64,000 bases of DNA from Trissonchulus latispiculum (Eukaryota; Nematoda; Enoplea; Enoplida; Ironidae). Location: positions 1 through 64,000 of the forward strand of contig JASAND010008410.1 in NCBI GenBank assembly GCA_030248195.1. The letters are read 5' to 3'. The position numbers and the translations under genes were made by a program. Positions 41,406 to 64,000 of the stretch are shown here, piece by piece; position 1 is the stretch's first letter, and every line of letters begins with the position of its first letter. Under the pieces are notes generated by a model. The model did not search any database. It was not told the DNA's origin and saw only the letters and a list, made by a program, of their open reading frames with translations.

Positions 41406-42904
41406 TGTGTTATAATGAAGTGAGCAAGATCAAAACTCTGATCTGTTCCAAACTCTACTTTCTCTAAGCTCTTCTCCTTTACACGGAAGGTCAGCACGTC
41501 TGTTCGCAATGAAGCAGACTTAAGCACCAGATCTCTGAAAGGTGGTGTTCCAGAATCAGAGATTCTCTGCGGCCAACCTTGGTAGGGGTCTTTGTCGGTG
41601 AGTTCGTTTAAGGCTCCTGAGTTGATCTTCTGTCGGACAGCAAGAGGGGTCAGCACTTGCTTCCTTGATGATGATTTCCAATGGTACAGCAAGCGGGGTC
41701 AGCACTTGCTTCCTTGATGAGCACTGGATTTGGTTGAGTTCTTCCTCACTGGATCTTCGGTTCTTTCTCGTTTGTACGGTAAACGCACCGTGTGTGAAGG
41801 CTAACGCGCCTGTATTTGCTTGTAATAAGCTGGACGGTAAACGCACCGTAGTTCAAGGCTAACGCGCCTTTGTTGCTTGTAATAAGACTCGGTAACTAAC
41901 AAACTGATTATTTAATGTAGACACTACAATTACTATTGGTACAATTCTTTGCGTTCAAACTAGCAATTACTACAGCACTAATAATTAGCTTACAATACAA
42001 TAAGATACAGTACAGTACAGTTTACTGTACCAGAGTTGCCAGATGCTTTCCCTTTTTAGGTTATTATTAATATTATTCCTGTCTGGAATAATATTACAGA
42101 CTTTGATTAAGTTATTGGGGACAAGGTCGATACTCTTTCTTAACGCCTTTTACACCCTTTCACTCTACTAACTCCTGCTAACTCGATTTCCCTATATGCT
42201 GTGTGTTGCCCGATATGCTTGTGCTTTGTTACTCTTTATACGTCCCCTTACAATAGGACTGTCAAACTAGTATCACAATAAACTAAGTTACTAATTATTA
42301 ACCTAGGGACGGTCTTTGGGTGAGCCCCTGAAAGTCGGACACTGCTTTCGCTCCGACACTCAGTTCAGGGATGCTATGTGGGATAGAATTTGAGGAACGC
42401 GAAACAGATGGGAGTTGGGAGGTCCTTCCTTACTTATTCCTAATTTGGTCTAAGTTAACACAGTTATGCAATAATGGTCTTCTAATCTTCTGGACAGGAA
42501 TCAAAGCTGGAGGGCCGGGGTAATGGTTTTAGAGATGCAGGAAGTTGACATTTTAGACTGAAGAGTACACTTGGGGAATCAACGAAAGTTCGCTCTAGAT
42601 AGGGTTTTAGGTATAGCCCAACTTTGATCAGGTTCTGATTGCTGCCGCTGCTTCCTTCTCCAATCACTGAATTAGCACAGCTGATTGACTAATGTACCTT
42701 CTGACAATACTGACTGACTGATGCTACTGAGAACTGATTCACAAACAGGACGACTTCCGGTCCACTGATACCAAGGATTACTAACTGAGCAGGAAATCAC
42801 TATCTATCGCAGCTAACGTCTAACGATCCAGATGGGCAGCTTCGCAGTCAAATCCGCACCTGAATCAAATGGGTTAAAACCCATTAATACAAGGTCACGG
42901 TGCG

Positions 42905-42915
42905 GGAATCGAACC
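42905..42915 (-). promoter_or_regulatory. tRNA B-box-like sequence inside the LTR
   Basis: GGTTCGATTCC on the element strand matches the Pol III B-box consensus exactly. It is kept in the 5' LTR (63,206-63,216) and the solo LTR (37,026-37,036), set in a tRNA-like T arm ending CCCGCACC. No full cloverleaf is seen. It may be a relic of a tRNA or an internal Pol III signal. Confidence 0.4.
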
Positions 42916-45314
42916 CAGCAACCATTACTCGTTCTTTCGCTTTCCTGGCCCAAAATGTGCATTTTGGGCCCTATTTGAACTTGTGAATTGACGAAAAAGG
43001 AAATTGAGAGAAGAATGCTGAAGAGGCGCAAGGCCGCGAAGCTACTGACATTTAGACAGAACCTTTTAACAAGCTGAGCCCTTGCTCCACCTAACCTTGA
43101 GAGGCCATGATACCTCGGTGACAGTGGAGCAACAATTCAGCGAGGGTGAATTAAAGAGTTGGATTTGGTCAGTAGCTTCTGCCCGCTCTCTTCACTAAAG
43201 TGAAAGTCACTTAGACTTCTTCCATTGCTTCGCTTCACAAAGTACTATGTGATTTCCTGTCACAAAACCGGCCTTCTTGGCCCTTTTTAGAGCACAACTT
43301 GTTGTTTTTGATTAAACTTGCGCTAATTCTTCGCGCAGACAAAATGGTTTGTAATGTTCTCACATTTTAGACCCAAATCGGGTCTTAATGACTTGCAATT
43401 AGACGAAACAACTCTTAGAAAACGTGTAATTCTCGCTATCTCGTACAGTACTTGAAAATCTTGCTGGTTTCTGTCCTTTTCTTGCACAAACCGGGCCGTC
43501 CGGCCCGTTTTAAGTTAATACAAACAGATCCTGACAGAAACTCACAGGTTTACTTGAACAGATTAACTAATCGAACAAGGTTTGTATTTTTGGCCTGGTT
43601 CTGGCCCAATTTCGTTGATTTGCCACGGGAAACAGGTTTGTTTCCCGTGGCCCGCTGCTATTCTTGGGCGTACACAAAACATGATAAGCTTTTGATGTTG
43701 GAAGATGGTCAATTAACTATAGTTTACTACAATTAACCTAGCTACTGCCTATCTACCTAAGTACATTAAATTAATAAACCAATATAATGGTAACTTAATA
43801 CTTATACTTATTTATACAAATTAATACTGTTGTTTGTTTGATTAGACGTTCTATGGCTAATCAGCTTTCCTACCCATATTGGCAAAGTTAAAATAATGGG
43901 CTGTTTCGTGGGTGAGTTTTTGCACATAGTTAGTTTTAACTCTTTTCTTACCAAGGATGCAAAAACTCACTCACTTACTATCTCAGCAGCCATTTTATGC
44001 AGTCCCTACTTACCGACACCAAGACTGCAGCTATTTCCCTACCTAGAACTGATTTAAACTGTCAGTCCGCTAATCGGACATTTATTACATACTTAACCTA
44101 GCGCTAACTAACCATCAGTCCGCTAATCGGACATTTGTTGCGAGATTCTTACTAATGACAGATTTCTACATATTTTATTCATTATTTACTTGTCTAAACC
44201 GGTTAGTACTGGATTCCATAATTGCGGCCCATCCGTCCCCTAATCGCAGGGCGACCTACACGGATGACCGGAAATCCGGCAGACCTGCAGACCTAATGGG
44301 GGTCCCCGTGACCCTAGGCTGCAGAATCTGCCCTAACCGTCAAACAGAACAATTTTAAACAGAATTTTACCTTGCACTCACTCCGAAATTAACAATTTTA
44401 ACATCAAACACGCATTTAAACCTAAACTGAAACAAATCCCTGATTATTTGTAATTAAGGGCCAAATTGCTACTCAATTTGGCCCATTTCCTGCCTAATAT
44501 CTGAGCAATTACACATTCATTCTGGCATTTCCAAGACCCTTATCGAACAAAGGGAGTTTACATGGTCTGCCCTCAATCACACACACAGTCACACAATTTT
44601 GGTTTAGAAATCACACTTAAAAGGGGCTAACTTGGAACCTCATCATCCATAAGGAATTTACCCAAGAAGCCAAGTACGTAAATTTGGGGTTCGCATTCAC
44701 ACAATAATAATCGCGATCACACCAATAACAACACAACAACTACATAATACAATACAGATTCTAACACTTCCCTACCTAAACCTACCTATTCTTTGTATGC
44801 ACTTTTTTATTGTGTTTTTTGGAGATTAACGGGTCTCCGTCGGGAGCCCAAAGTTTGTAAGTTTGCACTTTTAACGAGGACTTTAAACTTTGAAACTTTG
44901 TGAATTTTGCAGGAAAGCCAACGAGTAATAATTGCCCGGCAATTATTACTAAACAACAACCGTTAATTCCGCTAAGGACAGCTTGGTTAGATTAATATAG
45001 GGGAAGCCGGCCATTCCCCTTGAAAAGGCTAAATAATTATTAATTAAAACAGTTTCTGAGTTTTAATTCCTATTAGTTTTGGGTAACCGACCTACACAAA
45101 TAGCATAACACGATTACAGACAATAGTTTTAACATCGGTAGAGCCTAACTGTACGAACATGGCCGGCAATTCCTAATTGCCGGCTGTGGGGAGAATTATT
45201 TCCTAGACTTAACTCAATCCAGAATACGAGGTCATAGCCAAGGGACCTCCTACCTCAACTCAAGGGTGGGTCCCCGCTCAAAATCCCTTCATTACTAAAT
45301 AACCCCAAAAGTGT

Positions 45315-45505
45315 AAAAAAGGTAAAAAATATCTGGCCACGAGGGCTCGCTGACAAGAAAGACAAAAACTGGCCACGAGGGCTCGCTAGTTGAAAAAGGT
45401 GTGAAAAACTGGCCACGAGGGCTCGCTGATTAAAACACAAAAACTGGCCACGAGGGCCCACTGGATAAAAGCAAAAGTAAAAAGACTGGCCACGAGGGCT
45501 CGCTA
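45315..45505. repeat. Tandem array of CTGGCCACGAGGGCTCGCT
   Basis: Five copies of the 19-bp core separated by 20-35 bp of A-rich spacer. Present in the 3' LTR and not seen at the matching place (about 33,900-34,000) of the solo LTR, so it expanded in this lineage. Confidence 0.75.
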
Positions 45506-47132
45506 ATTTTGAATGAGCCAAAAAGGGCTGTAATTTGATTAAAAATTAAAGGCCCGAAGGCCGAAAACAAAAGTAAAAATAGGCCAAAAAGGGCCTTCTA
45601 AAACCTAGAAAAATGCGTTTTCTGTGCGTCTGGCCGAGCATAATACGCTCAATGGCCCTAGTTCGTGCTGGTCTTGCTTCGTGTTCGCTCATTTCTTCTC
45701 CTCTGACCTGTGTGGGCCAGAGGAGGTCCTAACTCGTGGTCCTATGGGGGGGTCTAAATGCGCTGGGGATTCTCCGGCCAAAACGCTGGCACACCAGGAG
45801 AACGCATTGAAATGGAGGGGGGATACACGGCCGCTCTCGGCCGGAGCTGAAGCAAGACTGACTGGAAATTTTGAATTTCCAGTCAGTCGACCTCACGCCT
45901 GTTGGCGGTTTTCTTTGAGGTGGACGGGATTTCCAGATTATTCTGGAAATCCCCTTTGTGGGTGCAGACCCGACGTGGGCTGTTTGCACGCCTGGCCCAC
46001 CAAGATGGAGATTTATGGGGGGTCTGGCTTTATGACCCCTTTGTGTGCAAAATTTTCGGAGCTGAATCTCCAGAAACTTTCCAGACATTTTGGTTAACAC
46101 ATAAAGGTAACCAAAGGGGAAAGTTTCTGATAAAAATAAAAATTCTCTTAAAACGAAAAATGAAAAAGGACAGAATAATGGCCTCTCAGGCCCCAATATG
46201 GAAATATAAAACTTAAGTGCTATTGTTGCTGTAAACTTTTGTAAATTTTATGTTTTGTATTTTTCAGGCGTTCCCTTATTCACTGGCCCCTTTCTCTTCC
46301 TTTTAGTGACGATTTCTCGGCCAGGAACAAGGGAAGCCGCCTTGTTAATCCCAGCAACAATTGCTCTCCCTCACTAGCGCTGGAGGTTCCTACCGTAAGA
46401 ACGGGAGGGCAATTGTTGCGCAAAAGTTGTGCATACAAAGAGCTACGTAATTTTTTAGCTAACAAAAACTAAATATTATTAATCTACGTATGAAACTACC
46501 TAAGGCTACTTATTTTCGTTTTATTTAAATAATTTGGGAGAGGGTTATGCCCCCTCCGAACCTATTAACACCTATGAATACACGTTAAGTTTCTTCTCTG
46601 CGAGGCAAATCTTCGCTGGGAGAGGGCCAACAGAAGCCCAAGAATGGATAGGGATGAATGAAAACATGAATGGGCGTAACAACAAGTGTTTGTTACGCCC
46701 ACTTGAAGAGTTTACGTAAGGTTAAAATTGAAGAATTAAAATTTTAAAGTACAAAGTTATTTTAACCCATAACTTTCGCAATATTAGGAGTTAAAAGACA
46801 GGGTTTGGATTTTTGGAACCAGGAAGAAATTGCCTTTCAGATGAGCCTAAGTTATATTTTCACTAAAAATTGTCAAAATTCATTAATTATTGCCTAATTA
46901 CCACTAATTAGGCCTAACTAGCACATATTAGTGCTCCAAAACCATTTTCATGAACCTAGCTACGGATATTAAGGTTTAAATGACCCATCTTCCAACGTAT
47001 GACCGTATATTTTACTTTTAACTGCAAATTCTGTAATAATTCGTGATTTCTAGGATGGTAACTTTTGATAGCTTTCTTCTTCACTAATGTAAGTTTGCTT
47101 TAAATGAAACTTTGAACCATTTTTCAACAACA

Positions 47133-48046
47133 GGAGGCCCGCTGAGGCCTGGGGAAGAGTAACGACTCCTCCGTTAGTTGATCAAAGGCTATAGTTGGGG
47201 GCCTATTACTGACCCGGGGAGTGGTAACGACCTCTCCGTTAATGGTTAGCCCTGATCAAACCTTATTAGCTCATATTACGCTGGGTTCCTATCCTATTCT
47301 GGCACTACCTATGTAGATTATAACGCTCTTTTCAACCTCATTTCTGGCATCTAGATTCTATTGAATTCCTATTCTCTTCTCGCGCTGTTTATTCGTGTTC
47401 TAACACTGTTATAAACCTAGTTTCTTAACCACGCTAGAACCTATGTCCCCTTTTGTAAGGTTTGAGTGATTTGAATTATTTAAACCGGCTGGCAACTCTG
47501 GTATTCACAAGAACATAAAATAATGACAAATATTGCTTGGACGTTCACATACTGCACACTAGGTTCTGAATAACTGTTTCCAAGAACAACCACCAATAAC
47601 AATTCCGATTCCGATCACGATTCACGATTTTAATGAAGTTTCTTAACTTTTTTGGCTTTTACTTCATCCGTAACATTACAACCTCCACAAGTAAAAGGGC
47701 TAGGTTTTTGACTATGGGGGAAGAACCAAAAGTAATAAAATTCCCCAGATATCTTCCGTCGCGAAACACAATATGTAACTACTTCAATACAGTACCAAAT
47801 CAGCTAATAACTGGCGATTATAGCATATTCAACATATATTTTACTTCACTGGAGACGGATAAAGGAATGCGTGATGCGTTCTGTGCGATGAGTTCGTAAT
47901 TCCTATCTTAACAACCTATGACTGGTAATGTGTCCTATAACTACTATCTCTATGATTCCATCAGCAACCAACCTAAAGCCATTCTAGACCTTGCCTTACG
48001 TTCCGCACTGTTATGGCTAAATCTCTCACTACAACCAATTACTTAC
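47133..48046. other. Internal non-coding region next to the 3' LTR
   Basis: A ~70-bp unit with GTAACGAC and CTCCGTTA occurs twice (47,150-47,250). No ORF with a domain, and no convincing polypurine tract beside the presumed LTR start. Confidence 0.45.
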
Positions 48047-48365
48047 GCTGGGCGGGGTCCCATCAGGATCACCCTGTCTTACCCAGAACCTACTATACTT
48101 ACTTGATTCTTCTAGCTGGGCGGGGTCCCATCAGGATTACCCTGTTTTACCCAGAAGCCTTCTCTCATCGCTTAGCTCTTCTACTGGGCGGGGTCCCAGC
48201 GGGATTACCCTGTCTTACCCAGAACTTACTACACTTGCTTAATTCTTCTACCTGGGCGGGGTCCCATCAGGATTGCCCTGTTTTACCCAGAACTTACTAT
48301 GCTTACTGACTTCTCTTAACTGGGCGGGGTCCCATCGGGATTACCCTGTTTTACCCAGAGTCACT
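48047..48365. repeat. Five-copy tandem repeat, period about 66-71 bp
   Basis: Units start with CTGGGCGGGGTCC at about 48,048, 48,115, 48,184, 48,253 and 48,320 and contain GATTACCCTGTTTTACCCAG. Each unit can pair CTGGGCGGGG with a downstream ACCCAG. The reading frames across it are by-products of the repeat. Confidence 0.85.
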
Positions 48366-49601: not shown

Positions 49602-51044
49602 CTAATTGCACCGTGGGGACACTGCATTTCCTGAGCTGTAAGGCTCAGGCAATTCCAATAGGCGACAGAGGTAGTTCTCCATCATTTCCTCTGGCGAGAG
49701 AGAATCTGAGCGAGTGAGCTGATCTTTTGCTCGTCGCCGTTCCATCTCCTCCTGAGCCCGCTGATGGCACAGGATACGGAGCTCTCCAATTTGGCGCCAA
49801 TATTCCAGGACGGGAATGATTTCCGCGTCCAAACAGCTTTTCAGTGCCTTCAGCTCGCGCCGAATATAGGCGGGAATCTTTCCTGCCCACTCTTGAGGCA
49901 GCAGGGGGGCGGCTATATCCAGTGGAGGAAAGGGATCCAATTCTAGATCCTCAGACTCAGGGCTGAGATATCTATCTAACAGATTCAACAGTTCCTCGTC
50001 AGTTCTGTAAGGCCTTGGCACAGGTGCCATGGGATCTGTTACAATGGTGGCGTACTCGAACATCCAGCTAGGGGCATTGGCTGGAACAATGACGTCCGCG
50101 TGTTCAGGGATGTTTGGATTCCGGAATCGCCGAGAGATTGGAGGAGGTGAAGTTTCCTCACCGTCCCCGGTTCCTCGACCTGAACTTTGATCGTCATTAT
50201 CTTGATCCTCCCCATCCTCATCACTCCGTTCCTCCCCCGCTAAAAAGGGGATGGTTTCCGACTGGGGGGTCTGATGAATCTGGCGCGAAATGGGGCCATC
50301 TGGGTTGGCAAGAGTAGGGTAAGGGGCTTCCAGCCCGAAAGGTGGTTCTGGATAAAGTGGGGTCTCAATCCGAAACGCCGGATTATTAACGATCTGCAAA
50401 ATATCCTGCCGCAGCTCCTCCAGAGCGACGGCGTACAAGGCCTCGTCCGCTTCTGTGAACCGTTCCAGATGCAACCGCTTGTGAAAATAGCGGAAGGCCG
50501 ATTGGATCTGGTCAATAGGGGTCATTTCCGGCGTTGGTTTGATGCAGTTTTCCAGCTGGATATTGGTCGTCCGAAGTCGGAGACCAGCTTCATCGGACTT
50601 AGCCTGATAGCCCGGGTGCTGCATAAAAGCTGGGTATTTAGCGCCTTCCGATATGATTTGCAACAACCGTTGGGCATTGTAAAATGCAACGGTATGATGT
50701 GGGTGGTTATTTAAGTCTTTTACAACAGTGTAGGTTCCAATGGCATGAGGGACTTTGACGGGGCAGGAGGTTGAGGCCTTCTTCTGCCCTGGAGCGGCAA
50801 ACGGTGTTCCGCATTGCGGACAGACGTCCGGTTTAGCATTTGGGGTGGCCACAGTAATTGGCCGGAATCCCACAAACGGGATCTTGGGGACTGGGGCTCG
50901 AGGCCCTATTGGCCGACCGGCCATCATTGGGGCAGGGACACGAAGTCCCGGTAAAACCATTGGGTTGCGGAAAGCTGGATTTACCGCAGACATGAGAGGC
51001 GAGTAGGATCGCGGTGCTACTCCTGTTGACTGACTTTCCGCCAT
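49602..51044 (-). CDS. ORF3 of the LTR element, unknown function (480 residues)
   Basis: ATG at 51,044, TAG at 49,602. The N-terminal ~60 residues are rich in Pro, Ala and Arg. Next comes CPQC at 75-78 and a further Cys at 94 with His at 100, a possible small zinc site. The middle is predicted helical. An acidic run (EERSDEDGEDQDNDD) lies near residues 273-287, and a Glu/Arg-rich helical segment (EEMERRRAKDQL) near the C-terminus. I find no RT, integrase, protease or known viral domain. A candidate splice acceptor (GATTTTAG) lies about 10 nt before the ATG, suggesting expression from a spliced RNA. It could be a structural or accessory protein of the particle. Confidence 0.75.
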   Translation of the reverse strand: MAESQSTGVAPRSYSPLMSAVNPAFRNPMVLPGLRVPAPMMAGRPIGPRAPVPKIPFVGFRPITVATPNAKPDVCPQCGTPFAAPGQKKASTSCPVKVPHAIGTYTVVKDLNNHPHHTVAFYNAQRLLQIISEGAKYPAFMQHPGYQAKSDEAGLRLRTTNIQLENCIKPTPEMTPIDQIQSAFRYFHKRLHLERFTEADEALYAVALEELRQDILQIVNNPAFRIETPLYPEPPFGLEAPYPTLANPDGPISRQIHQTPQSETIPFLAGEERSDEDGEDQDNDDQSSGRGTGDGEETSPPPISRRFRNPNIPEHADVIVPANAPSWMFEYATIVTDPMAPVPRPYRTDEELLNLLDRYLSPESEDLELDPFPPLDIAAPLLPQEWAGKIPAYIRRELKALKSCLDAEIIPVLEYWRQIGELRILCHQRAQEEMERRRAKDQLTRSDSLSPEEMMENYLCRLLELPEPYSSGNAVSPRCN

Positions 51045-51123
51045 CTGGATCTAAAATCATTGCATCAGATGAGCAATTTACTGAAGAAACATTCTGTTAC
51101 TTCCGTGTTGCGTTAGCGTCTTT

Positions 51124-51210
51124 AGAGTACCGACTCAGTGACTGCTACTCTCGCGCTGTAGAGTACCGACTCTGTGGCGAATTAATTATCTTTGAAAAGA
51201 GTACCGACTC
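51124..51210. promoter_or_regulatory. Three spaced copies of AGAGTACCGACTC before ORF3
   Basis: Exact 13-mers at 51,124-51,136, 51,160-51,172 and 51,198-51,210, spaced 36 and 38 bp. They lie just upstream of ORF3 on the element strand. The even spacing suggests protein binding or a small repeat expansion. Confidence 0.55.
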
Positions 51211-51440
51211 TTTATTTTCCATACAAGATCCATGGCTTCCAGAAACAGGGGAATGGTGCAATTAGTGATCAAACGCGATCTTGCTTTGTACAACAATTAT
51301 CTAAAACTTCATCTTTTTGTTGGAAAAACGCTTCCATTTCTAGGTTTGGTTAAACTTCACTTTACAATACATAAGGACATGACACAATAACAATACACTG
51401 CTTACGTACGACAAATAATAACAATTTACACAAATACAGT

Positions 51441-53171: not shown

Positions 53172-53284
53172 TTTGGTAACGACCAGTGCGACTTTCTCTG
53201 TTCCCTTGCAGGGATCTAGACTCAGTTTGGTAACGACCAAGTTCTCTGTATTCTCAAGAATACGGCTAATATGCTGGTATCGAC
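53172..53284. promoter_or_regulatory. Repeated TTTGGTAACGACC upstream of ORF2
   Basis: TTTGGTAACGACC at 53,172-53,184 and 53,226-53,238, with a variant GGTATCGACC at 53,275-53,284. The GTAACGAC core also occurs twice near 47,159 and 47,224 and is close to the ORF3 motif GTACCGAC. Confidence 0.5.
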
Positions 53285-53293
53285 CAGACAAAG

Positions 53294-54050: not shown

Positions 54051-57000
54051 TTAGTGTAGATGCCTTCGCAGAGAAGGCTCTCCCGGATCCCGAGGCCGGG
54101 ATGCTCCTGATTGGTAGCGAGCTCGCTCGCGCACTGGCGGCGCTATGCGTTCGGCATCCGAGCGCGCACGTAGAGTAAGGTGATCCAGAGGCAAAAGAAG
54201 GTCTTCTTGGTCAGGATATCCTCCTCCGGATCCCAGTGGGGTGATCGTTTCTCGTGCAGTTTCCCAGTGGCTGGGATCTTTCCGAAACCTGGGAGGGATG
54301 GTCCTCGGAGCCCGGGGTCTGACTGCTGGCGGCTTCGTAGGCGGCTCCGGGGGTGCAGTTTGCTGATCTTCGGTAGGCAGACGCTTTCCTTCCGCCAAGG
54401 CTGCTAGGTGCACTTGATAGTGCCTTTCTCCCGCCAAGGCAGCTAGATACAAATGGTACAGGCTTTTTGTGGTATCAGGATACATTCTGGTCCGATCACG
54501 TACCTCGCTTCTAAGTCCGGCAATGAAGAGCAGACTGAGGTAGGCGTCAGTGGCGTCGTCGGTTAATCGTTCCGCATATACTTCTCCAGCAAACGCGAGC
54601 AGCCGTAAATAGAAGTGGTCTATGGACTCATCCTCTCTTTGCTCAATGGTACTCAGCATCTGTTTACTGGCACGGTGGTCCACACCGGATAGAGGTGCCC
54701 TCACTGGCCTGGTGGCCCCGGTCAAGGCGGGGGTGTTGCGGTCCCCTCGCGGGTCAGCTTCACCCGGGGGCAGAAGGACTCGACCGTCCTTCCGGACCTC
54801 ATCCTCAACGGAGAGAGCCAACAGGTACAGCTCATCCAAGTGGCCTGAGGTGGAGGGTATTTGGAGTCGTATGTCTCTTCGCAGTCCAAGTAGGAAGTTT
54901 CTTCCCAATCTTAGTTTCACTGCCTCTGACTCTGCCTGAGCACCGTACGCGATGGCGGCTTGATCACAGAACCGATGATAGTATTGCCATACGGTTTCCG
55001 ACTCTGTCTGGTTGACTGACGCTGAGAATACCGTGGCGGGAGGCAATCCTACAGGGTGCAGGGCGTGTGCGCCGGCTCCCCGCGATCTCTCATCTTCGAT
55101 AGATGGTAAGGGATGACGCTGAACAGCTGGGGGTGCATTCCCATCTGAGGGAGTTCCTGCCGCGGCCTCAAACAAGTGGTAAGGTGTTGTCAAGGGTATG
55201 ACGTAGGCCGCGGGTAGAGACGTAGGGCGTATCTTCAATTCCCTCGTAGCGAAGGATATTTCGAAGGAACCGCTGAATTTTACCAGCACATCAGTTCCCA
55301 GCAGGATCACTGGAGGTAGGCTAGGATTGATGAAGATACCATGTGAAATAGGTGGATGACTGGGACATCCCGGGAATGAAATAACGGCCTCAATTTTCTT
55401 GGTGATGTTCAGTTGATGTCCAGTAGCCGAAGAGCTCTCACGTGGGCATTCCAGATCCACCAGGGTGAACCCATGCTTCTTCGCTACGCTTTCTGACATT
55501 ACCGTGATAGTAGCTCCTGTATCTAGCACGGCCTCAATTATAACGCCTTGAATGGCTACGTCTATGCACGGAGTGGAACTGCCAGCGGGGAGATCCTCCG
55601 CTGAGTATTCAGGGGGCTCCATCAAACACCAAACTCGGTCTCTCCGTCCTGTGGACGAATCTCGGGACCGGCTTGCTCGGTCAGTTCCATAGGGCGGCGG
55701 AGTGCCAACTCCGCCCCTTCCTTTTTCCTCTTCAGGACTCGGAGCGCGGGCCCGATTTGCACGCTCGTCTGTTTCGTCTTCGTACCGCCGAAGTAATTGA
55801 AAAGGCTCTTCCTCCAGCCGGCGTTCTTCTAGTCCAGAAAGCAAAGGTCTTCTAGGCCGGACAGCGAGGGACAGCTCAGGTAGCGGGGGCGATGGCGACA
55901 TAGGCTTCAGGAGGTCATCCTCGAATCGTATCTGCCCGCCGGACGGCTGAGCGTATGAGTGTGGCCGGGCACCACCACCATACCGGTTACCCGAGGTAGG
56001 GCGCATCAGATGCGCCGGCTGTTCCAGCAGGGGTGATCGACTTCGGAGTTCCGGAGGGCTGGAACGGGCATGTTGAGAAGTTGGCTCTACGGCGATAGTT
56101 CTCTGGTTCCCCATGGCCAAACGGCTCAATCGCAGTCCCAAACCGTGGAACGATTCTCGGCCCCGCTGGACAAGATTTTCTCTGACTTCCCCAAGACAAG
56201 GCGAAAACCAAATGGTAATTATCACGCCCACAACTATCAAGACCAGGACGATCAAAAATCCGGTCCAAACATTCATGTTGAGCGGGTGAATCAGCAGCGG
56301 AGCGGTGCGGTGATGCTCTTTCAGGATTTTCTTCACAGCCCGGTTCTCGTATTCCGCCCGCTCCAAATCAGTGAACTGGATGGGGGTTATATCCAGTTTG
56401 GGAGCTTCAAATGGTACTCGGTACGTTACCAACGGGGCTGAGTACTGCACGACTTCAATGGCACTGGTCAGTACTAGATCATTTATTATAATATGGTTAT
56501 AAGTACCGTGCTCCAGCCAAACTACTCCGTGACTGGGTACGGCAATAGTTTCTCCTCGTGATACATGCTGTAACTGAGGAGTCTGAGTTACCATGATTTC
56601 TGGATGGCTCGTCCTGATCAGTACTCCCGCAGGCGTAGAAGCAAAGTCTGTATCCGGGGTCATGGCCTTGACCATCATCTGCTGTCGGCAGTTTGCGGCG
56701 TCAATAGGCGCGGCTGACACAATAGCCCTGAGACACGCGGATTGTGGAGTGGCGACTAACGCGTCGGGTCCACAAACCCATAATCCTGGAGATGCTTGAC
56801 ATTCTGATAGCTTGATTTCCGAAAACTCGGAATTCTTGTGAGTGGCTTCATGCCTCACATATCGCGGAACTGGAGCTTTCATTTGTGCGTGACTAGTTGG
56901 ATCATTGTAGCCAACATTACTGACTTCATAGACGGGTGCGACATCTTCCCTTGTAGGGGTAGGTATCTCCATGATGAAACCAAACAGCAACTTCCGGATG

Positions 57001-60000
57001 TCCATTCGGACAGGATAGATTTTCCCAAATCTGTAGATCAAGCTAGGCTCATCCCGCAGAATTGACTGATTCAGCTGGGCATGGCCGTGAACTATATCTC
57101 GGATGATCTTGAAATTAATCAAACTTGGGGATATTCTCCCGTCAAGTCCAGCTGCCATAACACTGTCAATGCTGTGTTTCAGCGAATGCTCGAAGTTTGA
57201 CACAATCAATGAATATTGCACTTGCGTATTCATTGTCAAAGCCTCGCATCGGGCTGAGTTGATCAATCCCACAAGTTCTTGCAATGAATAATGCATGAAT
57301 GAATAAACATTCTCATTAGCTTCCACCAGCTTCTCAAGAGACTCTTCGTGGGCAATTACCTGTTCATCCAACTTCTGTGTAGCTTCAATGAGTGCGTTGA
57401 CTTTGTTCTTCATGGCTCCCAGATGCACTGTGTTAGAAATGGACAATCCCAATCCAACCACTCCCAGTATGGCTCCAATTGCCCGTTTATCTCGGCGCAA
57501 AGGGAATTTGGACTGTACATGCTGATAGCCATGGTCGGCGTACAGCGATTCGTTGTAATGCTGATACTGAGGTGTGGAGGTGTTGCACAGGATGGGACTC
57601 TTGTCGCAGATGATCTTCATTACAGATGAATAATATCTCGTGTTCAGGATCCCACCATACATATCATGATATTCTTCTGTCACATTGCGGACCAATCCAT
57701 CCAGGTGCGGCTCGTGCGGGCAACCACTTATGGTCTGATCGCGGGGTGTGTCGCACTTCTTGCATTGGTGTTGCAACTTCTCGGGAATAGATGAGAAGTC
57801 GCCCCCGCAGAGCGAGCAAAAGGAAAGCCAGGCTCGCATTTTAGCTATATGCGGTGGCTTAGGCATCTTCATGTGGATCAGGATTGGAACATATTCCGTC
57901 TTTGTGTAGGTGGCCATCAAGCCTTTCGGTGATAGGGCTAAACCCCAGTTAGTAGACACCATAGTGTTCATTGCCTTTGCTCTTTGCGTAAAATAGTCAT
58001 CTCCACCCTGACTGTTAACGCAGGGTATTAGCATGGCAATAGCCAGGCCAAACACGGCCCACATCAGCAAAATGGGCACAGGAAGAGCTCGTATGCCTTT
58101 AGCTTTTCCGGTTGCCTTTGGGTCAGGTCCTTTCTTTTCTTCGGCTTTAGGAATGACTTCTTTAATCTCCGCTTTTGGCAATCGCGCCACGGCGGGAACG
58201 GAACTAGATCGGAAGGCGCTTTGATGAACCGGAGCAGGCGACTTCCGCTTCGGGCTGGGTGGCACGTCCGTAGTGTGCCTGACAACATTCATAGCTTCCA
58301 TTCGGGCTCTAGCCCGCAGAAATCGCTGTTGAGCTTCCCAATAACGCTCTTTCTCCTGTTTCATTTGCCACTTACGTCGCTCTTCCTTTTGAGCACGTTT
58401 TCTTTCCTTAGTTCTGACATCTTTCAGAAGTCTGCGCAGAAACTTGATGTCCTGGGGACACAGGTCAGATTTAGGAATCTGCACCTCCCCTAATACTTTC
58501 TTTATTTTCTTGATGACCTTCTTACGCTTCTTCTTGCTTCCACGGTTCTTCTTTGTCTTGATCGTGACAGGCTCAATGGCGTTCAAGTTTACGCGAATCC
58601 TGTGTGCTTGGAGTTTGTGCACTGCATTTTCCAAATCTTCATCTGTTCCGTCTGAGCTGTCAGAACTTATAGATTCATCAGAACTCTCGTCCGGTGAATC
58701 CAGCACCATGACTCCATGCTGACCCAGTTCCTTCATTTCCTCTATCAAGGAATCAGCATCTTCTTTGTCAGGTTCCGTCTGCTTCCAGGTCAGAGGCATG
58801 GATGGGTTAAGGAGATTCTCAACCCACAGGTCAAGTCTGCCAGCATGAGGTGAATCCTCAGAGGCTTCCAAAACATCACTGTCCAAACTGCAATAAAATT
58901 GCTCATCAGTCACAGATTTCCCAAGTCTTTTCAGGATTCGCCGAGTGACCTCGTAAATAGCCTCTTGATCAATGATTTTGAATCTTCCCCGTTCCGGATA
59001 TTTGATGAGGTCACTGATCCGGTATTCCATCTGGCGTGAAGAATTAGGACCACCCTGGGTCATGAAAATGCTGGGGTCCAGGGCCCACCTCAATTCCTCT
59101 TCTGAGACCTTGACTCCCAGTCGGTCCAAGACTCGTTTGGCAAATCTCATAACTGGGCCCATCTCAATGATGTTAGGCGTTTGCTGAACTTCTTTCTTTG
59201 GTTCCGCGGAGTCGGTCTTTGTCATTTCTTCCTTCTGGCCATTTTGACCCAGTAGTTCCTTTTCGGAGACTAAAGGAGCGCGTAACATGTCCATTATCAT
59301 GCTACCCTGAGCAAGGACCTTCTGTGCGCTTTGCATGATGGACGGCATATCTGCAGCCACCCTGGGCTGCTGGTCGGATCCTACCGACATTATCTGAGAT
59401 GGCGGGACCAGTTTCTTTTGCTGGTCCAGAATAGCCTCTAGTTGAGGGGCGGGTGACAACCCGAGCTGCACGCGAAATTCCCGTACGGCTTCGCCAAGTC
59501 CGACAGTTAGGGAATCTGGCGGCGGTACTGACTGAAAACGAGGAGCGGGATAGCACTGAGTCAGATCCTGGCTCCAGGGACTTCTTCTCAGTCCGCGTCC
59601 ACGTCCTAGTGAACGTCCTCTGACTTGTGTCGGTCTTCCCTCAGGAATCCGAGCCGGGGGCCTCCAACTTGGGCCACTGAGCAGTTTTCCCGGTTCTTCC
59701 GGCTGTTGACCAGTTGGTTCAGACGCTTTCTCTTCCGCTGGATAGGTCTGCTGTGCAGATTCTGTGCTCGATTTCTCAGATGAGCAAGAGCTTTCTCTTT
59801 CCGAGCTCCCTCCAGTGATTGGACGGGCAGCCCCTGATTCGGCGGATAATCTCCTCTTCACATGAGAGGGATAACCGTATTCAATGGTCTGTGGCTCCTC
59901 CAACCGATGTGTCCTCGGATACGTGACGGACATCGGCTTCTGATACATAGGCAAGGCATGGAGCTCACGATCCAATCTTTCTGTCTCAGGATCCGCTGCC

Positions 60001-61496
60001 TCTTGATCTGTGTTCAACGTATACGCAGTCTTACCTTTCGGCTGTTCCATCTTGACGTAGGGAGGAGTAGCGAAATACTGGCCTCCTAGATCCTTGATTT
60101 CCTGTTCCAACTGCAAGATCTGAATAGGCAATTGGGTTGCCCCCGGGGGGAAGTACCCTGACTTCCCCTCAGGTTCGGCAGCTATTGTCTGGACCAGGGC
60201 AGGCCCACCTCGGGGCTGTCCAACGTCAGCAAATCGTGATCCATATGGGGCATTCACTGCCTCCACGGCATTTCGCCCCTCATTCCGGTTCCACTGCGGC
60301 CTGGGCTGTGGATACTGCTGATTCTGGTTCTGAGGTCCAGGTCTGGGTGGATAACCGCCGTTCCGGTTTCTGTCTCCTCCGTACCCATTGGACGGGTACC
60401 GGGGTGGTCCATTGCTTGGGCGGAACTGGTTCGGATTCCCATTGTTGCTGTTGAATCCATAGTTAGGACGTGGAGGTCCAGGATAGTCGTTTCTGTTCCG
60501 GTAAGCTCCGCCTCCCGGAGACCGGCATTCGCGTTTCGAGTGCCCTGCTCGTCCGCAGTTGAAGCATCTGAAGTCATTCGGGAAAGGGATTTTATCGTTC
60601 CCCTTCTTAGGCTGCGGGGCAGGTCTGGGCTGTTCTGATCCAGCAATCTTGATTCCTTTGATCTCGTTGGCCAACAGGGCCGTGCTCTGTACCAATGATG
60701 TGATCGTATTCAGCAAGGCTGGGCCTGTCAGGCTCGTGCTCGGAACCGCAGCCTCAGGATCCACCTCTAAAAAGGCAGGCGTTCCCTCTCCGGGGTACAC
60801 GCCTTCTGCTTGCCTTGCCTTTGTGAAGGCCACTGAATACTCTGTTGTGTCCATCGGGACATGCGGCTTAAATTCATTCCTGAGTCCAATCAGGAAAGTC
60901 TTCAATTTCAGATTTTCCAAGAATTCTGGATCTCCTCGGTCATCCCAGGCTATGCGGGCATACTTCTGTAGCCGCAAGGAATAATCCGCCACCGATTCGT
61001 GTGGCATCTGCCGAATGCTCAACAGCTTGGCAGTCGCATGCATGTCAGTGAGCGGGGGAATCATATGTTCCCTGAGGGACCTCACAGAGGCGTCCCAATC
61101 GTCTTGCTGCATAGCCCCCCTGGGCATGCACTTGTAGATTTCTGCCGCTCGACCTCTGAGGGTAGAGGAGAAATTCATCACTTTCTGATATTCGTCCAGA
61201 TTAAGCCTCTGACTGAATCTCTCGTAGTTGGCAAGATGATCATCAAAGTTTTCATGATCTTTTCCTGAATAGCAGGGCATATCCCGGTATGACGCTGCTA
61301 TGGCTTGATTCTGAATGCTATCGCGCAATTGTCCCAAGAGATCCTCCACATTTCCATTGTTGAAATTTGGCCATTGATTCCATTGCGGCAGGATCGGATT
61401 AGGCTGGTGGCCAGGCTGGCCAAAGCCAGGTGCCACAGGCGGAGGAATGTTCGGGGGTCCATCCCCATTTCCATTGAGTTGTTCAAGTTGATCCAT
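54051..61496 (-). CDS. ORF1 of the LTR element: Gag / envelope-type glycoprotein / protease / Gag-like polyprotein
   Basis: Frame open from 61,604; first ATG at 61,496 gives 2,481 residues. Numbers below count from 61,604. Gag capsid-like domain at about 108-265, zinc knuckle CFNCGRAGHSKREC at about 346, then a Pro/Gln-rich region. A duplicated helical module at about 813-932 (KRVLDRLGVKVSEEEL and RRILKRLGKSVTDEQF). Lys-rich stretch and charged coiled coil at 1,011-1,105. Hydrophobic segment like an internal signal peptide near 1,175-1,195. A CSLC/CKKC ectodomain, furin-type site RRDKR at about 1,370, then a fusion-peptide-like run (AIGAILGVVGLGLS) and a heptad-repeat helix. Transmembrane anchor about 1,777-1,800. 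Retropepsin-type VLDTGATITVMS near 2,022. Two Gag-like helical repeats at about 2,199 and 2,318. No RT, RNase H or integrase. The reading frame is unbroken. Confidence 0.85.
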   Translation of the reverse strand: MDQLEQLNGNGDGPPNIPPPVAPGFGQPGHQPNPILPQWNQWPNFNNGNVEDLLGQLRDSIQNQAIAASYRDMPCYSGKDHENFDDHLANYERFSQRLNLDEYQKVMNFSSTLRGRAAEIYKCMPRGAMQQDDWDASVRSLREHMIPPLTDMHATAKLLSIRQMPHESVADYSLRLQKYARIAWDDRGDPEFLENLKLKTFLIGLRNEFKPHVPMDTTEYSVAFTKARQAEGVYPGEGTPAFLEVDPEAAVPSTSLTGPALLNTITSLVQSTALLANEIKGIKIAGSEQPRPAPQPKKGNDKIPFPNDFRCFNCGRAGHSKRECRSPGGGAYRNRNDYPGPPRPNYGFNSNNGNPNQFRPSNGPPRYPSNGYGGDRNRNGGYPPRPGPQNQNQQYPQPRPQWNRNEGRNAVEAVNAPYGSRFADVGQPRGGPALVQTIAAEPEGKSGYFPPGATQLPIQILQLEQEIKDLGGQYFATPPYVKMEQPKGKTAYTLNTDQEAADPETERLDRELHALPMYQKPMSVTYPRTHRLEEPQTIEYGYPSHVKRRLSAESGAARPITGGSSERESSCSSEKSSTESAQQTYPAEEKASEPTGQQPEEPGKLLSGPSWRPPARIPEGRPTQVRGRSLGRGRGLRRSPWSQDLTQCYPAPRFQSVPPPDSLTVGLGEAVREFRVQLGLSPAPQLEAILDQQKKLVPPSQIMSVGSDQQPRVAADMPSIMQSAQKVLAQGSMIMDMLRAPLVSEKELLGQNGQKEEMTKTDSAEPKKEVQQTPNIIEMGPVMRFAKRVLDRLGVKVSEEELRWALDPSIFMTQGGPNSSRQMEYRISDLIKYPERGRFKIIDQEAIYEVTRRILKRLGKSVTDEQFYCSLDSDVLEASEDSPHAGRLDLWVENLLNPSMPLTWKQTEPDKEDADSLIEEMKELGQHGVMVLDSPDESSDESISSDSSDGTDEDLENAVHKLQAHRIRVNLNAIEPVTIKTKKNRGSKKKRKKVIKKIKKVLGEVQIPKSDLCPQDIKFLRRLLKDVRTKERKRAQKEERRKWQMKQEKERYWEAQQRFLRARARMEAMNVVRHTTDVPPSPKRKSPAPVHQSAFRSSSVPAVARLPKAEIKEVIPKAEEKKGPDPKATGKAKGIRALPVPILLMWAVFGLAIAMLIPCVNSQGGDDYFTQRAKAMNTMVSTNWGLALSPKGLMATYTKTEYVPILIHMKMPKPPHIAKMRAWLSFCSLCGGDFSSIPEKLQHQCKKCDTPRDQTISGCPHEPHLDGLVRNVTEEYHDMYGGILNTRYYSSVMKIICDKSPILCNTSTPQYQHYNESLYADHGYQHVQSKFPLRRDKRAIGAILGVVGLGLSISNTVHLGAMKNKVNALIEATQKLDEQVIAHEESLEKLVEANENVYSFMHYSLQELVGLINSARCEALTMNTQVQYSLIVSNFEHSLKHSIDSVMAAGLDGRISPSLINFKIIRDIVHGHAQLNQSILRDEPSLIYRFGKIYPVRMDIRKLLFGFIMEIPTPTREDVAPVYEVSNVGYNDPTSHAQMKAPVPRYVRHEATHKNSEFSEIKLSECQASPGLWVCGPDALVATPQSACLRAIVSAAPIDAANCRQQMMVKAMTPDTDFASTPAGVLIRTSHPEIMVTQTPQLQHVSRGETIAVPSHGVVWLEHGTYNHIIINDLVLTSAIEVVQYSAPLVTYRVPFEAPKLDITPIQFTDLERAEYENRAVKKILKEHHRTAPLLIHPLNMNVWTGFLIVLVLIVVGVIITIWFSPCLGEVRENLVQRGRESFHGLGLRLSRLAMGNQRTIAVEPTSQHARSSPPELRSRSPLLEQPAHLMRPTSGNRYGGGARPHSYAQPSGGQIRFEDDLLKPMSPSPPLPELSLAVRPRRPLLSGLEERRLEEEPFQLLRRYEDETDERANRARAPSPEEEKGRGGVGTPPPYGTDRASRSRDSSTGRRDRVWCLMEPPEYSAEDLPAGSSTPCIDVAIQGVIIEAVLDTGATITVMSESVAKKHGFTLVDLECPRESSSATGHQLNITKKIEAVISFPGCPSHPPISHGIFINPSLPPVILLGTDVLVKFSGSFEISFATRELKIRPTSLPAAYVIPLTTPYHLFEAAAGTPSDGNAPPAVQRHPLPSIEDERSRGAGAHALHPVGLPPATVFSASVNQTESETVWQYYHRFCDQAAIAYGAQAESEAVKLRLGRNFLLGLRRDIRLQIPSTSGHLDELYLLALSVEDEVRKDGRVLLPPGEADPRGDRNTPALTGATRPVRAPLSGVDHRASKQMLSTIEQREDESIDHFYLRLLAFAGEVYAERLTDDATDAYLSLLFIAGLRSEVRDRTRMYPDTTKSLYHLYLAALAGERHYQVHLAALAEGKRLPTEDQQTAPPEPPTKPPAVRPRAPRTIPPRFRKDPSHWETARETITPLGSGGGYPDQEDLLLPLDHLTLRARSDAERIAPPVRERARYQSGASRPRDPGEPSLRRHLH

Positions 61497-61614
61497 TTCT
61501 TCTTCTTGTACCGGTCGGTATGGACGAAGTTGACTTCTCGTCAGAGTTAAGGTTGATCCTCGCTTGAGCTTAATTCTTCTTCTGTTGGGTCGTGATGTCC
61601 TCACTGGACTACTT

Positions 61615-61618
61615 ACCT
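61615..61618 (-). promoter_or_regulatory. Candidate major splice donor in the leader
   Basis: AAG|GTAAGT on the element strand at about 61,620-61,611, between the LTR and the ORF1 ATG. It could produce spliced RNAs for ORF2 and ORF3, as retroviruses do for env. Confidence 0.45.
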
Positions 61619-61662
61619 TATTTCCAATTCCTCTGTCTTTGTTCAGGATTGATGAGAATTGT

Positions 61663-61680
61663 TCCTCACTGGGGGCTCCA
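61663..61680 (-). other. Candidate primer-binding site
   Basis: TGGAGCCCCCAGTGAGGA, 16 nt after the 3' end of the 5' LTR on the element strand. It begins TGG as expected for pairing with a tRNA CCA end. The implied acceptor stem is GCCCCCA; I cannot name the tRNA. The gap from the LTR is longer than usual. Confidence 0.4.
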
Positions 61681-61696
61681 AATCTTCAGTTTACCG

Positions 61697-64000
61697 TGTA
61701 ATGAAGTGAGCAAGATCAAAACTCTGATCTGTTCCAAACTCTACTTTCTCTAAGCTCTTCTCCTTTACACGGAAGGTCAGCACGTCTGTTCGCAATGAAG
61801 CAGACTTAAGCACCAGATCTCTGAAAGGTGGTGTTCCAGAATCAGAGATTCTCTGCGGCCAACCTTGGTAGGGGTCTTTGTCGGTGAGTTCGTTTAAGGC
61901 TCCTGAGTTGATCTTCTGTCGGACAGCAAGAGGGGTCAGCACTTGCTTCCTTGATGATGATTTCCAATGGTACAGCAAGCGGGGTCAGCACTTGCTTCCT
62001 TGATGAGCACTGGATTTGGTTGAGTTCTTCCTCACTGGATCTTCGGTTCTTTCTCGTTTGTACGGTAAACGCACCGTGTGTGAAGGCTAACGCGCCTGTA
62101 TTTGCTTGTAATAAGCTGGACGGTAAACGCACCGTAGTTCAAGGCTAACGCGCCTTTGTTGCTTGTAATAAGACTCGGTAACTAACAAACTGGTTATTTA
62201 ATGAATACACTACAATTACTGTTTGTACAATTCTGTGCGTTCAAACTAACAACTACTACAGCACTAATAATTAGCTTACAATACAATAAGATACAGTACA
62301 GTACAGTTTACTGTACCAGAGTTGCCAGATACTTTCCCTTTCTAGGTTATTATTAATATTATTCCTGTCTGGAATAATATTACAAACTTTGATTAAGTTA
62401 TTGGGACAAGGTCGATACTCTTTCTTAACGCCTTTTACACCCTTTCACTCTACTAACTCTTTCTAACTCAATTTCCCTATATGCTGTGTGTTACCCTATA
62501 TGCTTGTGCTTTGTTACTCTTTATACGTCCCCTTACAATAGGACTGTCAAACTAATATCACAATAATCTAAGTTACTAATTATTAACCTAGGGACGGTCT
62601 TTGGGTGAGCCCCTGAAAGTCGGACACTGCTTTCGCTCCGACACTCAGTTCAGGGATGCTATGTGGGATAGAATTTGAGGAACGCGAAACAGATGGGAGT
62701 TGGGAGGTCCTTCCTTACTTATTCCTAATTATGGTCTAAATTAACACAGTTATACAAAGTTAATAATGGTCTTCTAGTCTTCTGGACAGGAATCAAAGCT
62801 GGAGGGCCGGGGTCATGGTTTTAGAGATGCAGGAAGTTGACATTTTAGACTGAAGAGTACACTTGGGGAATCAACGAAAGTTCGCTCTAGATAGGGTTTT
62901 AGGTATAGCCCAACTTTGATCAGGTTCTGATTGCTGCCGCTGTCTCTCCTTCTCCAATCTACTGAATTATGCTGATTGACTAATGTACCTTCTGACAATA
63001 CTGACTGACTGATACTGCTACTGAGAACTGATTCACAAACAGGACTGGGACTTCCGGTCCACTGATACCAACGAATTACTAACTGAGCAAGGAACTCACT
63101 AGTCTATCGCAGCTAACGTCTGACGATCCAGCATGGACAGCTTCGCAGTCAAATCCGCACCTGAATCAAATGGGTTAAAACCCATTAATACAAGGTCACG
63201 GTGCGGGAATCGAACCCAGCAACCATTACTCGTTCTTTCGCTTTCCTGGCCCAAAATGTGCATTTTGGGCCCTATTTGAACTTGTGAATTGACGAAAAAG
63301 GAATTTGAGAGAAGAATGCTGAAGAGGCGCAAGGCCGCGAAGCTACTGACATTTAGACAGAACCTTTTAACAAGCTGAGCCCTTGCTCCACCTAACCTTG
63401 AGAGGCCATGATACCTCGGTGACAGTGGAGCAACAATTCAGCGAGGGTGAGTTAAAGAGTTGGATTTGGTCAGTAGCTTCTGCCCGCTCTCTTCACTAAA
63501 GTGAAAGTCACTCAGACTTCTTCCATTGCTTCGCTTCACAAAGTACTATGTGATTTCCTGTCACAAAAACCGGCCTTCTTGGCCCTTTTCAAGGCACGAC
63601 TTGTTGTTTTTGGTTAAACTTGCGCTAATTCTTTGCGCAGACAAAATGGTTTGTAACGTTCTCACATCTGGACCCAAGTCGGGTCTTAATAACTTGCAAT
63701 TGTACGAAACAACTCTCAAAAACGTGTAAACCTCGCTGTTCGTACAGTACTTGAAAATCTTGCTGTATTCTGTCCTTTTCTTGCACAAACCGGGCCGCCT
63801 GGCCCGTCTTAAGCTAATACAAACAGATCCTGACAGAAACTCACAGGTTTACTTGAACAGATTAACTAATCGAACAAAACTTGCATTTCTGGCCTAGTTC
63901 TGGCCCAATTTTGTTGATTTGCCACGGGAAACAGGCTTGTTTCCCGTGGCCCGCTGCTATTCTTGAGCGTACACAAAACTTGATAAGCTTTTGATGTTGG
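61697..64000 (-). mobile_element. 5' LTR of the giant LTR element (partial, runs off the window)
   Basis: The + strand edge TGTAATGAAG at 61,697 is the LTR 3' end CTTCATTACA. It matches 41,411-43,740 with only scattered differences (for example near 62,205-62,260), so insertion was fairly recent. It includes the same hairpins (63,248-63,271 and 63,921-63,950) and B-box-like sequence (63,206-63,216). The remaining ~3.4 kb expected is outside the window. Confidence 0.85.

What the first reader, a model, noticed from the sequence alone, without database searches (positions are those of the whole stretch)
41411..64000. Giant LTR element with intact Gag, envelope and protease but no reverse transcriptase or integrase
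Directly repeated LTRs bound a ~14.5-kb internal region whose three long ORFs are unbroken, yet none shows RT, RNase H or integrase motifs, and the gaps between ORFs are too short or too AT-rich to hide them. Non-autonomous LTR elements normally keep little coding capacity. One that keeps particle, envelope and enzyme genes but not copying genes suggests a partnership with another element or a helper virus.
Basis: partly seen in the sequence, partly recalled or inferred. Interest (0 to 1): 0.9.

Follow-up and report, generated by a model that had tools for sequence, protein, structure and literature searches.

The report
Giant retroelement missing its copying genes
This is a very large virus-like mobile element in an unidentified, probably animal, genome that still encodes a particle protein, a cell-fusion envelope and a protease but no genes for copying or inserting itself, so it probably borrows those from another element.

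Summary
On the minus strand, direct repeats 20.3 kb apart bound an internal region of about 14.5 kb. One unbroken 2,544-codon ORF encodes Gag, a paramyxovirus-F-type envelope and an aspartic protease; a NADAR-domain ORF and an unknown 480-aa ORF follow. Pfam scans of all six frames found no RT, RNase H, integrase or tyrosine recombinase, though the method recovered a LINE RT just outside. The Gag-Env-PR order matches planarian Burro elements as described in print, but Burro continues into RT-RH-IN and this ORF stops. One distant public protein (P0003) shows the same order without pol, so a one-locus deletion is not the only reading; its contig could not be read. New: eight small hairpins with a shared U-CGNU-A loop cluster upstream of both accessory ORFs and the 3' LTR, suggesting regulated subgenomic expression. 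The host assembly could not be searched, so copy number, target-site duplication and an autonomous partner are untested. Verdict: a pol-less, probably trans-dependent variant of a known giant LTR-element plan.

The parts
61697..64000 (-). 5' LTR, inner part only (cut by window end); ends ...CTTCATTACA at 61,697
41411..47132 (-). 3' LTR; inner (5') end uncertain, between about 46,990 and 47,150; 96% identical to the 5' LTR over the 2.3 kb seen
61663..61680 (-). candidate primer binding site TGGAGCCCCCAGTGAGGA, 16 nt after the LTR end; tRNA not identified
   Evidence: inference
61616..61617 (-). candidate splice donor AAG|GTAAGT in the leader, upstream of the first ATG of ORF1
   Evidence: motif judged by eye
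54051..61496 (-). ORF1 from first ATG (codon 64 of the 2,544-codon open frame): Gag-linker-Env-PR-Gag-like repeats
60942..61172 (-). Gag: Retrotrans_gag PF03732, aa 172-248, E 4.8e-9
60522..60569 (-). CCHC zinc knuckle, aa 373-388, E 0.0013 (19.1 bits, just under the Pfam cut-off of 20.8)
56196..58064 (-). Env: signal-like hydrophobic stretch, furin-type site RDKR|AIGAILG (RDKR at 57,483-57,494), C-terminal TM (hydrophobic windows aa 1801-1834); class I F type
55368..55565 (-). aspartic protease, aa 2041-2106, motif VLDTGA, PF13975 E 3.8e-7
54855..55094 (-). Gag-like repeat X (aa 2198-2277), resembles the Gag domain
   Evidence: score 75, shuffles mean 27, 0 of 200 as high; BLASTP of ORF1 against itself in the same call listed no internal repeat; region to Retrotrans_gag E 0.072
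54465..54680 (-). Gag-like repeat Y (aa 2336-2407)
   Evidence: vs Gag 64, vs X 84; 0 of 200 shuffles each
51441..53093 (-). ORF2: NADAR-domain protein (PF08719 E 1.2e-9); GC3 0.71 against 0.52-0.53 in ORF1 and ORF3
49602..51044 (-). ORF3: 480 aa, no Pfam or NCBIfam match
53174..53287 (-). three hairpins upstream of ORF2 with loops CGAT, CGTT, CGTT (loop starts 53,282; 53,235; 53,181, the last 88 nt before the ATG)
51125..51213 (-). three hairpins upstream of ORF3, loop CGGT (loop starts 51,206; 51,168; 51,132, the last 88 nt before the ATG)
47153..47237 (-). two hairpins just before the 3' LTR, loop CGTT (loop starts 47,229; 47,164)
48047..48359 (-). 68-bp tandem array, 4.6 copies, in the 3' untranslated part
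32421..38530 (+). diverged relative of the LTR (63-72% in four permissive blastn blocks), ends CTAACTTCATTACA; no internal element sequence found beside it: solo LTR

Best explanation
A giant (about 26 kb), envelope-bearing, gypsy-type LTR element built on the Burro plan (Gag-Env-PR in one frame) that lacks the whole RT-RNase H-integrase block. Most likely it makes its own Gag shell, F-type envelope and the protease that cuts the polyprotein, packages its own LTR RNA, and has that RNA copied and inserted by RT and integrase supplied in trans by an autonomous relative. Downstream of the protease, where Burro has pol, it carries a NADAR gene and an unknown gene, probably made from spliced or otherwise subgenomic RNAs whose 5' borders carry hairpin clusters. 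Shown: LTRs, domains, absence of recognisable pol, intact frames, hairpin-forming sequences. Inferred: trans supply, particle formation, packaging, splicing, and NADAR as a counter to host ADP-ribosylation.
For: LTRs, a second diverged LTR of the family in the window and a leader with PBS-like and donor-like sequences. Domains Gag, CCHC, Fusion_gly, protease and NADAR in intact frames. An Env profile from three sequences hits solved fusion glycoproteins over positions 5-403 of 447, best 3.2e-10. No pol in six frames, with a working positive control. Printed precedents for gag-keeping, pol-less elements and for Gag-Env-PR order. P0003: distant protein with the same order and no pol.
Against: No partner element, second full-length copy, target-site duplication or transcript was seen; the host assembly could not be queried. 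A single locus cannot show recent mobility. The PBS does not match a tRNA that I could name, and no clear PPT was seen. P0003 and ORF1 match significantly only in Env; P0003 Gag and PR pieces did not hit ORF1. P0003's own Fusion_gly and protease matches are under Pfam's cut-offs (24.9 against 29.8 and 19.7 against 28.2 bits) and its protease-like stretch reads VDPAAD rather than D-T/S-G, so shared descent of the architecture is not proven. The Fusion_gly score for the whole of ORF1 is 0.1 bit under the cut-off, though the Env piece alone is above it (33.3 against 29.8).
Confidence: 0.5

Rival explanations
1. One-locus derivative: an autonomous Gag-Env-PR-RT-RH-IN parent lost pol here, the gap being taken by the NADAR and unknown genes; this copy never moved again.
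For: Burro has pol exactly where this ORF stops. The NADAR ORF has a different third-position GC (0.71 against 0.52), as expected of a foreign piece. Pol loss is common in LTR elements.
Against: All three ORFs are intact. If the seen LTR differences are post-insertion, about 5 nonsense and 29 frameshift mutations would be expected in 10.5 kb of coding sequence. Those LTR differences are clustered (dispersion 3.0, 0 of 20,000 simulations as high), which points to LTR exchange, so this clock is weak. P0003 also lacks pol in its ORF.
Confidence: 0.27
2. Bipartite lineage: structural genes (Gag-Env-PR plus accessory genes) and copying genes (pol) have long been on separate elements that share LTR or leader signals.
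For: A second lineage, whose Env is about 22% identical, shows the same Gag-Env-PR polyprotein with about 440 aa after the protease-like domain and no RT.
Against: P0003's contig (18.6 kb) has room for a separate pol ORF that I could not read. Only one such protein was found, and a search with P0003 itself found no other. Gag and PR similarity to ORF1 not significant; two of P0003's domain matches are under Pfam cut-offs.
Confidence: 0.13
3. Domesticated locus: the host keeps the Gag-Env-PR or NADAR proteins for its own use.
For: Frames intact despite LTR differences.
Against: LTR differences are clustered and 400 bp of inner LTR is identical, so the insertion may be young. No orthologue was tested. 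Both LTRs and all three ORFs remain.
Confidence: 0.05
4. Pol is present but unrecognised, or the assembly is chimeric.
For: About 800 aa of linker and ORF3 match no family; two structure models failed (pLDDT 33 and 39).
Against: RT and IN are among the most conserved retroelement domains and Pfam scans show none; no YxDD-type motif lies in any element-sense frame. RT, RH and IN pieces of P0004 hit none of 1,518 window ORF fragments, but this is a weak test: the RT piece also missed the LINE RT of the window.
Confidence: 0.05

Closest known systems
Burro giant gypsy elements of planarians (PMC6431247, section 7 read)
   Same: Very large; Gag then Env then PR in one frame; Env with kinship to mononegavirus fusion glycoproteins; long polyprotein with extra domains; accessory ORFs
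   Different: Burro has dUTPase, RT, RNase H and integrase after PR; here the frame ends after two Gag-like repeats. Here a NADAR gene and an unknown gene follow. No sequence comparison with Burro was possible
TelKA and TelKA2n of bdelloid rotifers (PMC5408684, passages and section 9)
   Same: Paramyxovirus-F-type env with furin site; TelKA2n is non-autonomous, keeps env and lacks most of pol
   Different: TelKA env is an ORF3 downstream of pol; [quoted passage not shown]
Gag-keeping non-autonomous LTR families of barley, e.g. RLG_WHAM, RLG_Sabrina_A, RLC_Giselle (PMC5738225, passages)
   Same: Potentially intact gag, copying genes missing or fragmentary, proposed mobilisation by a related autonomous family sharing the PBS region
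   Different: No envelope mentioned; plant; no accessory NADAR gene mentioned
P0003, unnamed public protein (2,160 aa, ENA)
   Same: Gag-Env(F)-aspartic-protease-like in one ORF, no RT/RH/IN; Env 22% identical over 569 columns
   Different: Gag and PR not detectably similar; protease motif differs; rest of its contig unseen
P0004, unnamed public protein (1,646 aa, ENA)
   Same: Related F-type Env (22% over 304 columns)
   Different: Conventional RT-RNase H-integrase-Env ORF

Membership tests
LTR retroelement | Two directly repeated LTRs bounding an internal region | tested here: met
   96.0% over the 2.3 kb seen of the 5' LTR
LTR retroelement | Target-site duplication | not testable with these tools
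   Outer end of the 5' LTR lies beyond the window; the genome search did not complete
LTR retroelement | PBS after the 5' LTR and PPT before the 3' LTR | tested here: inconclusive
   TGGAGCCCCCAGTGAGGA 16 nt after the LTR end, tRNA not identified; no clear PPT
Ty3/gypsy (Metaviridae) | RT-RNase H-integrase of the gypsy clade | tested here: not met
   none in six frames
Ty3/gypsy (Metaviridae) | Retrotrans_gag-type Gag with CCHC knuckle and clan AA protease | tested here: met
   knuckle E 0.0013, under its cut-off
Burro | Env in frame between Gag and PR | tested here: met
   definition
Burro | dUTPase, RT, RH, IN after PR in the same polyprotein | tested here: not met
Burro | Sequence relationship to Burro | not testable with these tools
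   no Burro sequence at hand
Class I F-type envelope (Fusion_gly, PF00523) | Profile match, furin site followed by fusion-peptide-like stretch, C-terminal TM | tested here: met
   Pfam 2.2e-8 on the Env piece; PDB F0 3.2e-10 with the three-sequence profile; RDKR|AIGAILG and TM
NADAR (PF08719) | Profile match | tested here: met
   1.2e-9, 39.1 bits against cut-off 35.1
NADAR (PF08719) | Conserved Glu with Lys seven residues on (E43/K50 in PMC11543638 numbering) | tested here: inconclusive
   By eye SEHLYCAVL: Glu kept, Lys position is Leu; not aligned to a structure; a PDB sequence search found no NADAR chain
LARD / TRIM | Internal region with little or no coding capacity (definition recalled) | tested here: not met
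   10.5 kb of intact coding sequence

The most novel reading that the evidence does not exclude
A multipartite endogenous retrovirus lineage in animals: one element carries the particle, fusion and protease genes plus a NADAR gene and hairpin-marked subgenomic units, while polymerase and integrase reside on a separate element. The two cooperate in trans, as segmented viruses do.
Probability: 0.13. Interest if true: 0.9.

Novelty: new variant of a known kind. Interest (0 to 1): 0.55.

Why it matters
Non-autonomous LTR elements often keep signals and lose genes. This one keeps what is needed to build and fuse a particle and lacks only what is needed to copy itself, which makes a test of trans-dependence, and of division of labour between retroelements, possible by genome search alone. 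A NADAR gene in an LTR element would extend to retroelements the idea, so far argued for RNA and DNA viruses (PMC9503650, passages), that such enzymes counter host ADP-ribosylation. The hairpin clusters give a concrete cis-signal to look for in relatives.

Tried and rejected
Host assembly: the genome search was asked the same question 25 times and never answered, so copies, TSD, PBS tRNA, host identity and an autonomous relative are untested. That the host is an animal is an inference from the kind of element and a sub-threshold CARD match.

Related DNA: six scans of viral contigs (Gag, Env, NADAR, P0003, Env alignment, P0004) and one of genome contigs (P0003) gave no confirmed relative. Protein search with the Env piece found none, with the whole ORF1 two, with P0003 only itself. 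Searches scored only the 8,000 candidates sharing most words, so relatives may have been missed.

Structure: Env (3 sequences) pLDDT 32.6 and ORF3 (single sequence) pLDDT 39.2 are too poor to use; no fold search was made. A glycosylation list printed had an indexing error and is not used.

Age from LTRs: rejected as a clock, because the 63 substitutions counted in 22 bins are clustered. One search took 63 substitutions and 18 gap events per 2,200 bases by hand (17 gap events lie in those 22 bins); limited to quiet bins it still expects about 15 disabling changes, and with the identical inner 400 bp none.

Rejected readings: RT hidden in another frame; pol in the LTRs; LARD/TRIM (coding intact). 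The motif scan also gave one chance-like CCK-type hit in a minus frame and one each of FLDD and LPFGL in stop-rich plus frames. The LINE RT at 40,356-41,069 is outside the element and on the other strand, not its pol.

Hairpins: the loop class was noticed first by eye and then tested, so the 0.03 expected is post hoc. Allowing any loop with one free position (AT-repeat loops left out), 60 shuffles gave a mean of 2.6 and at most 4, against 6 observed. In the pair count, two of five measures are not unusual (pairs changed on both sides, 55 of 500 shuffles; further pair types, 182 of 500), and the structure slid by +1 scores 0.340 against 0.375. MFE of the three clusters is not lower than shuffles (z 0.48, 0.07, -1.05). 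In the MFE of the ORF3 cluster the hairpins are partly replaced by other pairings, although its centroid shows all three; of the two ORF2-side hairpins folded, only the 53,235 one forms.
Full report
What is there. The element lies on the minus strand. Its 5' LTR begins beyond the window end and its inner edge is at 61,697; its 3' LTR begins (reading leftwards) near 47.0-47.15 kb and ends at 41,411. The 2.3 kb of the 5' LTR that can be seen is 96.0% identical to the 3' LTR. The last 14 bases read CTCACTTCATTACA in the 5' LTR, CTCACTTCATTATA in the 3' LTR, and CTAACTTCATTACA in a diverged related LTR at 32.42-38.53 kb on the plus strand. Beside that third copy no internal element sequence was found: tblastn with the three ORFs gave nothing in 1-41,400, and blastn gave one 81-column match that lies inside the LTR itself. 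It is therefore a solo LTR. So the element belongs to a family with LTRs of about 5.6 kb, and the whole element should be about 26 kb. A TSD could not be tested.

Coding content. ORF1 is open for 2,544 codons (first ATG at codon 64, 61,496), where the other five frames have 82-139 stops. Pfam finds Retrotrans_gag (4.8e-9), a CCHC knuckle (0.0013, under its cut-off), Fusion_gly (2.7e-7, 0.1 bit under its cut-off) and aspartic protease (3.8e-7), in that order. The Env piece alone passes the Fusion_gly cut-off (2.2e-8). It has a hydrophobic signal-like stretch at aa 1197-1225, RDKR followed by AIGAILG at aa 1398, and TM-like windows at aa 1801-1834. A profile of this Env with P0003 and P0004 hits solved fusion glycoproteins, best over positions 5-403 of 447 at 3.2e-10; 98 distinct sequences reached E 1, and the 60 listed are fusion glycoproteins by name; that the best ones are of paramyxoviruses and others of pneumoviruses is recalled. 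After the protease come two stretches that resemble the Gag domain and each other; in each of three comparisons 0 of 200 shuffles scored as high, but BLASTP of ORF1 against itself listed no internal repeat, and the region's Retrotrans_gag match is weak (0.072). ORF2 has a NADAR domain (1.2e-9) and a third-position GC of 0.71 against 0.52 (ORF1) and 0.53 (ORF3). ORF3 matches nothing.

What is missing. Scans of six frames of 47,133-61,696 and of 41,411-47,132 gave no RT, RNase H, integrase or tyrosine recombinase. The same procedure found the LINE RT at 1.5e-26 about 340 bases outside the element. RT, RNase H and integrase pieces of P0004 hit none of 1,518 stop-to-stop fragments of the window, while its Env piece hit ORF1 (8.7e-15); that RT piece also missed the LINE RT, so this second test is weak. 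The gaps between ORFs are 903 bases at about 34% GC and about 390 bases; a further 2.47 kb at about 40% GC lies between ORF3 and the LTR.

Relatives. A search of ORF1 over its whole length scored 8,000 candidates (a capped list) and kept 2. P0003 (2,160 aa) has Gag, F-type Env and a protease-like domain in the same order and no pol; its Gag match just passes Pfam's cut-off, its Env and protease matches (7.7e-6, 0.0013) do not. Its Env is 22% identical to ours over 569 columns, 6e-42 in a direct comparison. P0004 is a conventional RT-RH-IN-Env ORF. A search from P0003 scored 5,291 candidates and returned only itself. The Gag and PR pieces of P0003 do not hit ORF1, so only Env homology is established; the common order is suggestive. 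The P0003 contig is 18.6 kb and may hold pol in another ORF.

Comparison with print. Burro elements have Env in frame between Gag and PR, described there as the first such case, followed by dUTPase, RT, RH and IN (PMC6431247 section 7). [quoted passage not shown] Barley has pol-less families with potentially intact gag, thought to be cross-mobilised through a shared PBS region (PMC5738225 passages). NADAR is described in RNA and DNA viruses, with a role against ADP-ribose-based defence proposed; in that paper's main text the word stem retrotranspos and the word LTR do not occur (PMC9503650). My searches for pol-less Gag-Env-PR elements or NADAR in LTR elements (listings only) showed no such report; they do not prove absence.

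Hairpins. On the element strand, 7 of 44 TCGNTA sites in the window have perfect stems of at least 4 pairs, and all seven lie in the element's noncoding gaps; on the other strand 1 of 45 does, at 4,448. An eighth, at 47,229, has a 3-pair perfect core extended after one mismatch. They form three clusters: three upstream of ORF2, three upstream of ORF3, two before the 3' LTR; the last loop starts 88 nt before the ATG in both ORF2 and ORF3. For loop CG[TG]T, 6 with stem at least 4 were seen in 3,964 noncoding bases against a shuffle mean of 0.03, at most 1 in 500. Counting pairs on the seven used for the alignment, percentage paired, covariation score and cells with both sides changed were reached by 0 of 500 shuffles, two other measures were not unusual (55 and 182 of 500), and the structure is above all six slid versions, the +1 slide closely (0.375 against 0.340); the set was chosen by its stems. 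A covariance model found its seven members at E 0.001-0.055 and nothing else in the window better than 0.67. No Rfam family reached its gathering score there. Downstream of two clusters lie acceptor-like TTGCTAG (53,119) and TTTCTTCAG (51,081); the leader has AAG|GTAAGT at 61,617. My reading is that the hairpins mark the 5' borders of subgenomic messages for ORF2 and ORF3; packaging signals or internal initiation are alternatives.

How it most likely works. LTR-driven RNA makes the Gag-Env-PR polyprotein; the protease separates the parts; Gag packages the LTR RNA; RT and integrase come from another element. All steps after the sequence itself are inference. The insertion's age is unclear: under neutral decay at the mean LTR difference the ORFs should hold about 34 disabling changes (with counts taken), but the LTR differences are clustered, so a young insertion with exchanged LTR tracts is as good a reading as selection.

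Verdict. It is a new variant of a known kind. The cheap decisive tests are the host assembly and the P0003 contig.

Noticed in passing
53,174-53,287; 51,125-51,213; 47,153-47,237 (-): Eight hairpins with a shared U-CGNU-A loop in three clusters, upstream of ORF2, ORF3 and the 3' LTR, with compensatory stem changes; the last loop starts 88 nt before the ATG in both ORF2 and ORF3.
   Followed up: yes
51,441-53,093 (-): NADAR gene inside an LTR element, with third-position GC unlike its neighbours; the Lys seven residues after the conserved Glu appears to be Leu.
   Followed up: partly
54,465-55,094 (-): Two extra Gag-like repeats after the protease, so the polyprotein seems to hold three related Gag-type stretches.
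   Followed up: partly
48,047-48,359: 68-bp tandem array (4.6 copies) near the 3' end of the internal region.
   Followed up: no
41,200-41,411: Flank next to the 3' LTR is rich in long homopolymer runs (C, A and T on the minus strand), possibly low-quality assembly or a fast-evolving simple repeat.
   Followed up: no
40,356-41,069 (+): Fragment of a non-LTR (LINE-like) reverse transcriptase, RVT_1 1.6e-27.
   Followed up: no
35,426-35,499 (-): tRNA-Ala (AGC) inside the region of the diverged solo LTR, perhaps a tRNA-derived insertion.
   Followed up: no
14,591-15,193 (-): 200-aa ORF with a sub-threshold CARD match (E 0.14).
   Followed up: no
18,491-19,057 (-) and 26,779-27,324 (+): Two inverted copies of a near-identical sequence sharing about 160 aa of open frame, seen in the ORF list.
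   Followed up: no
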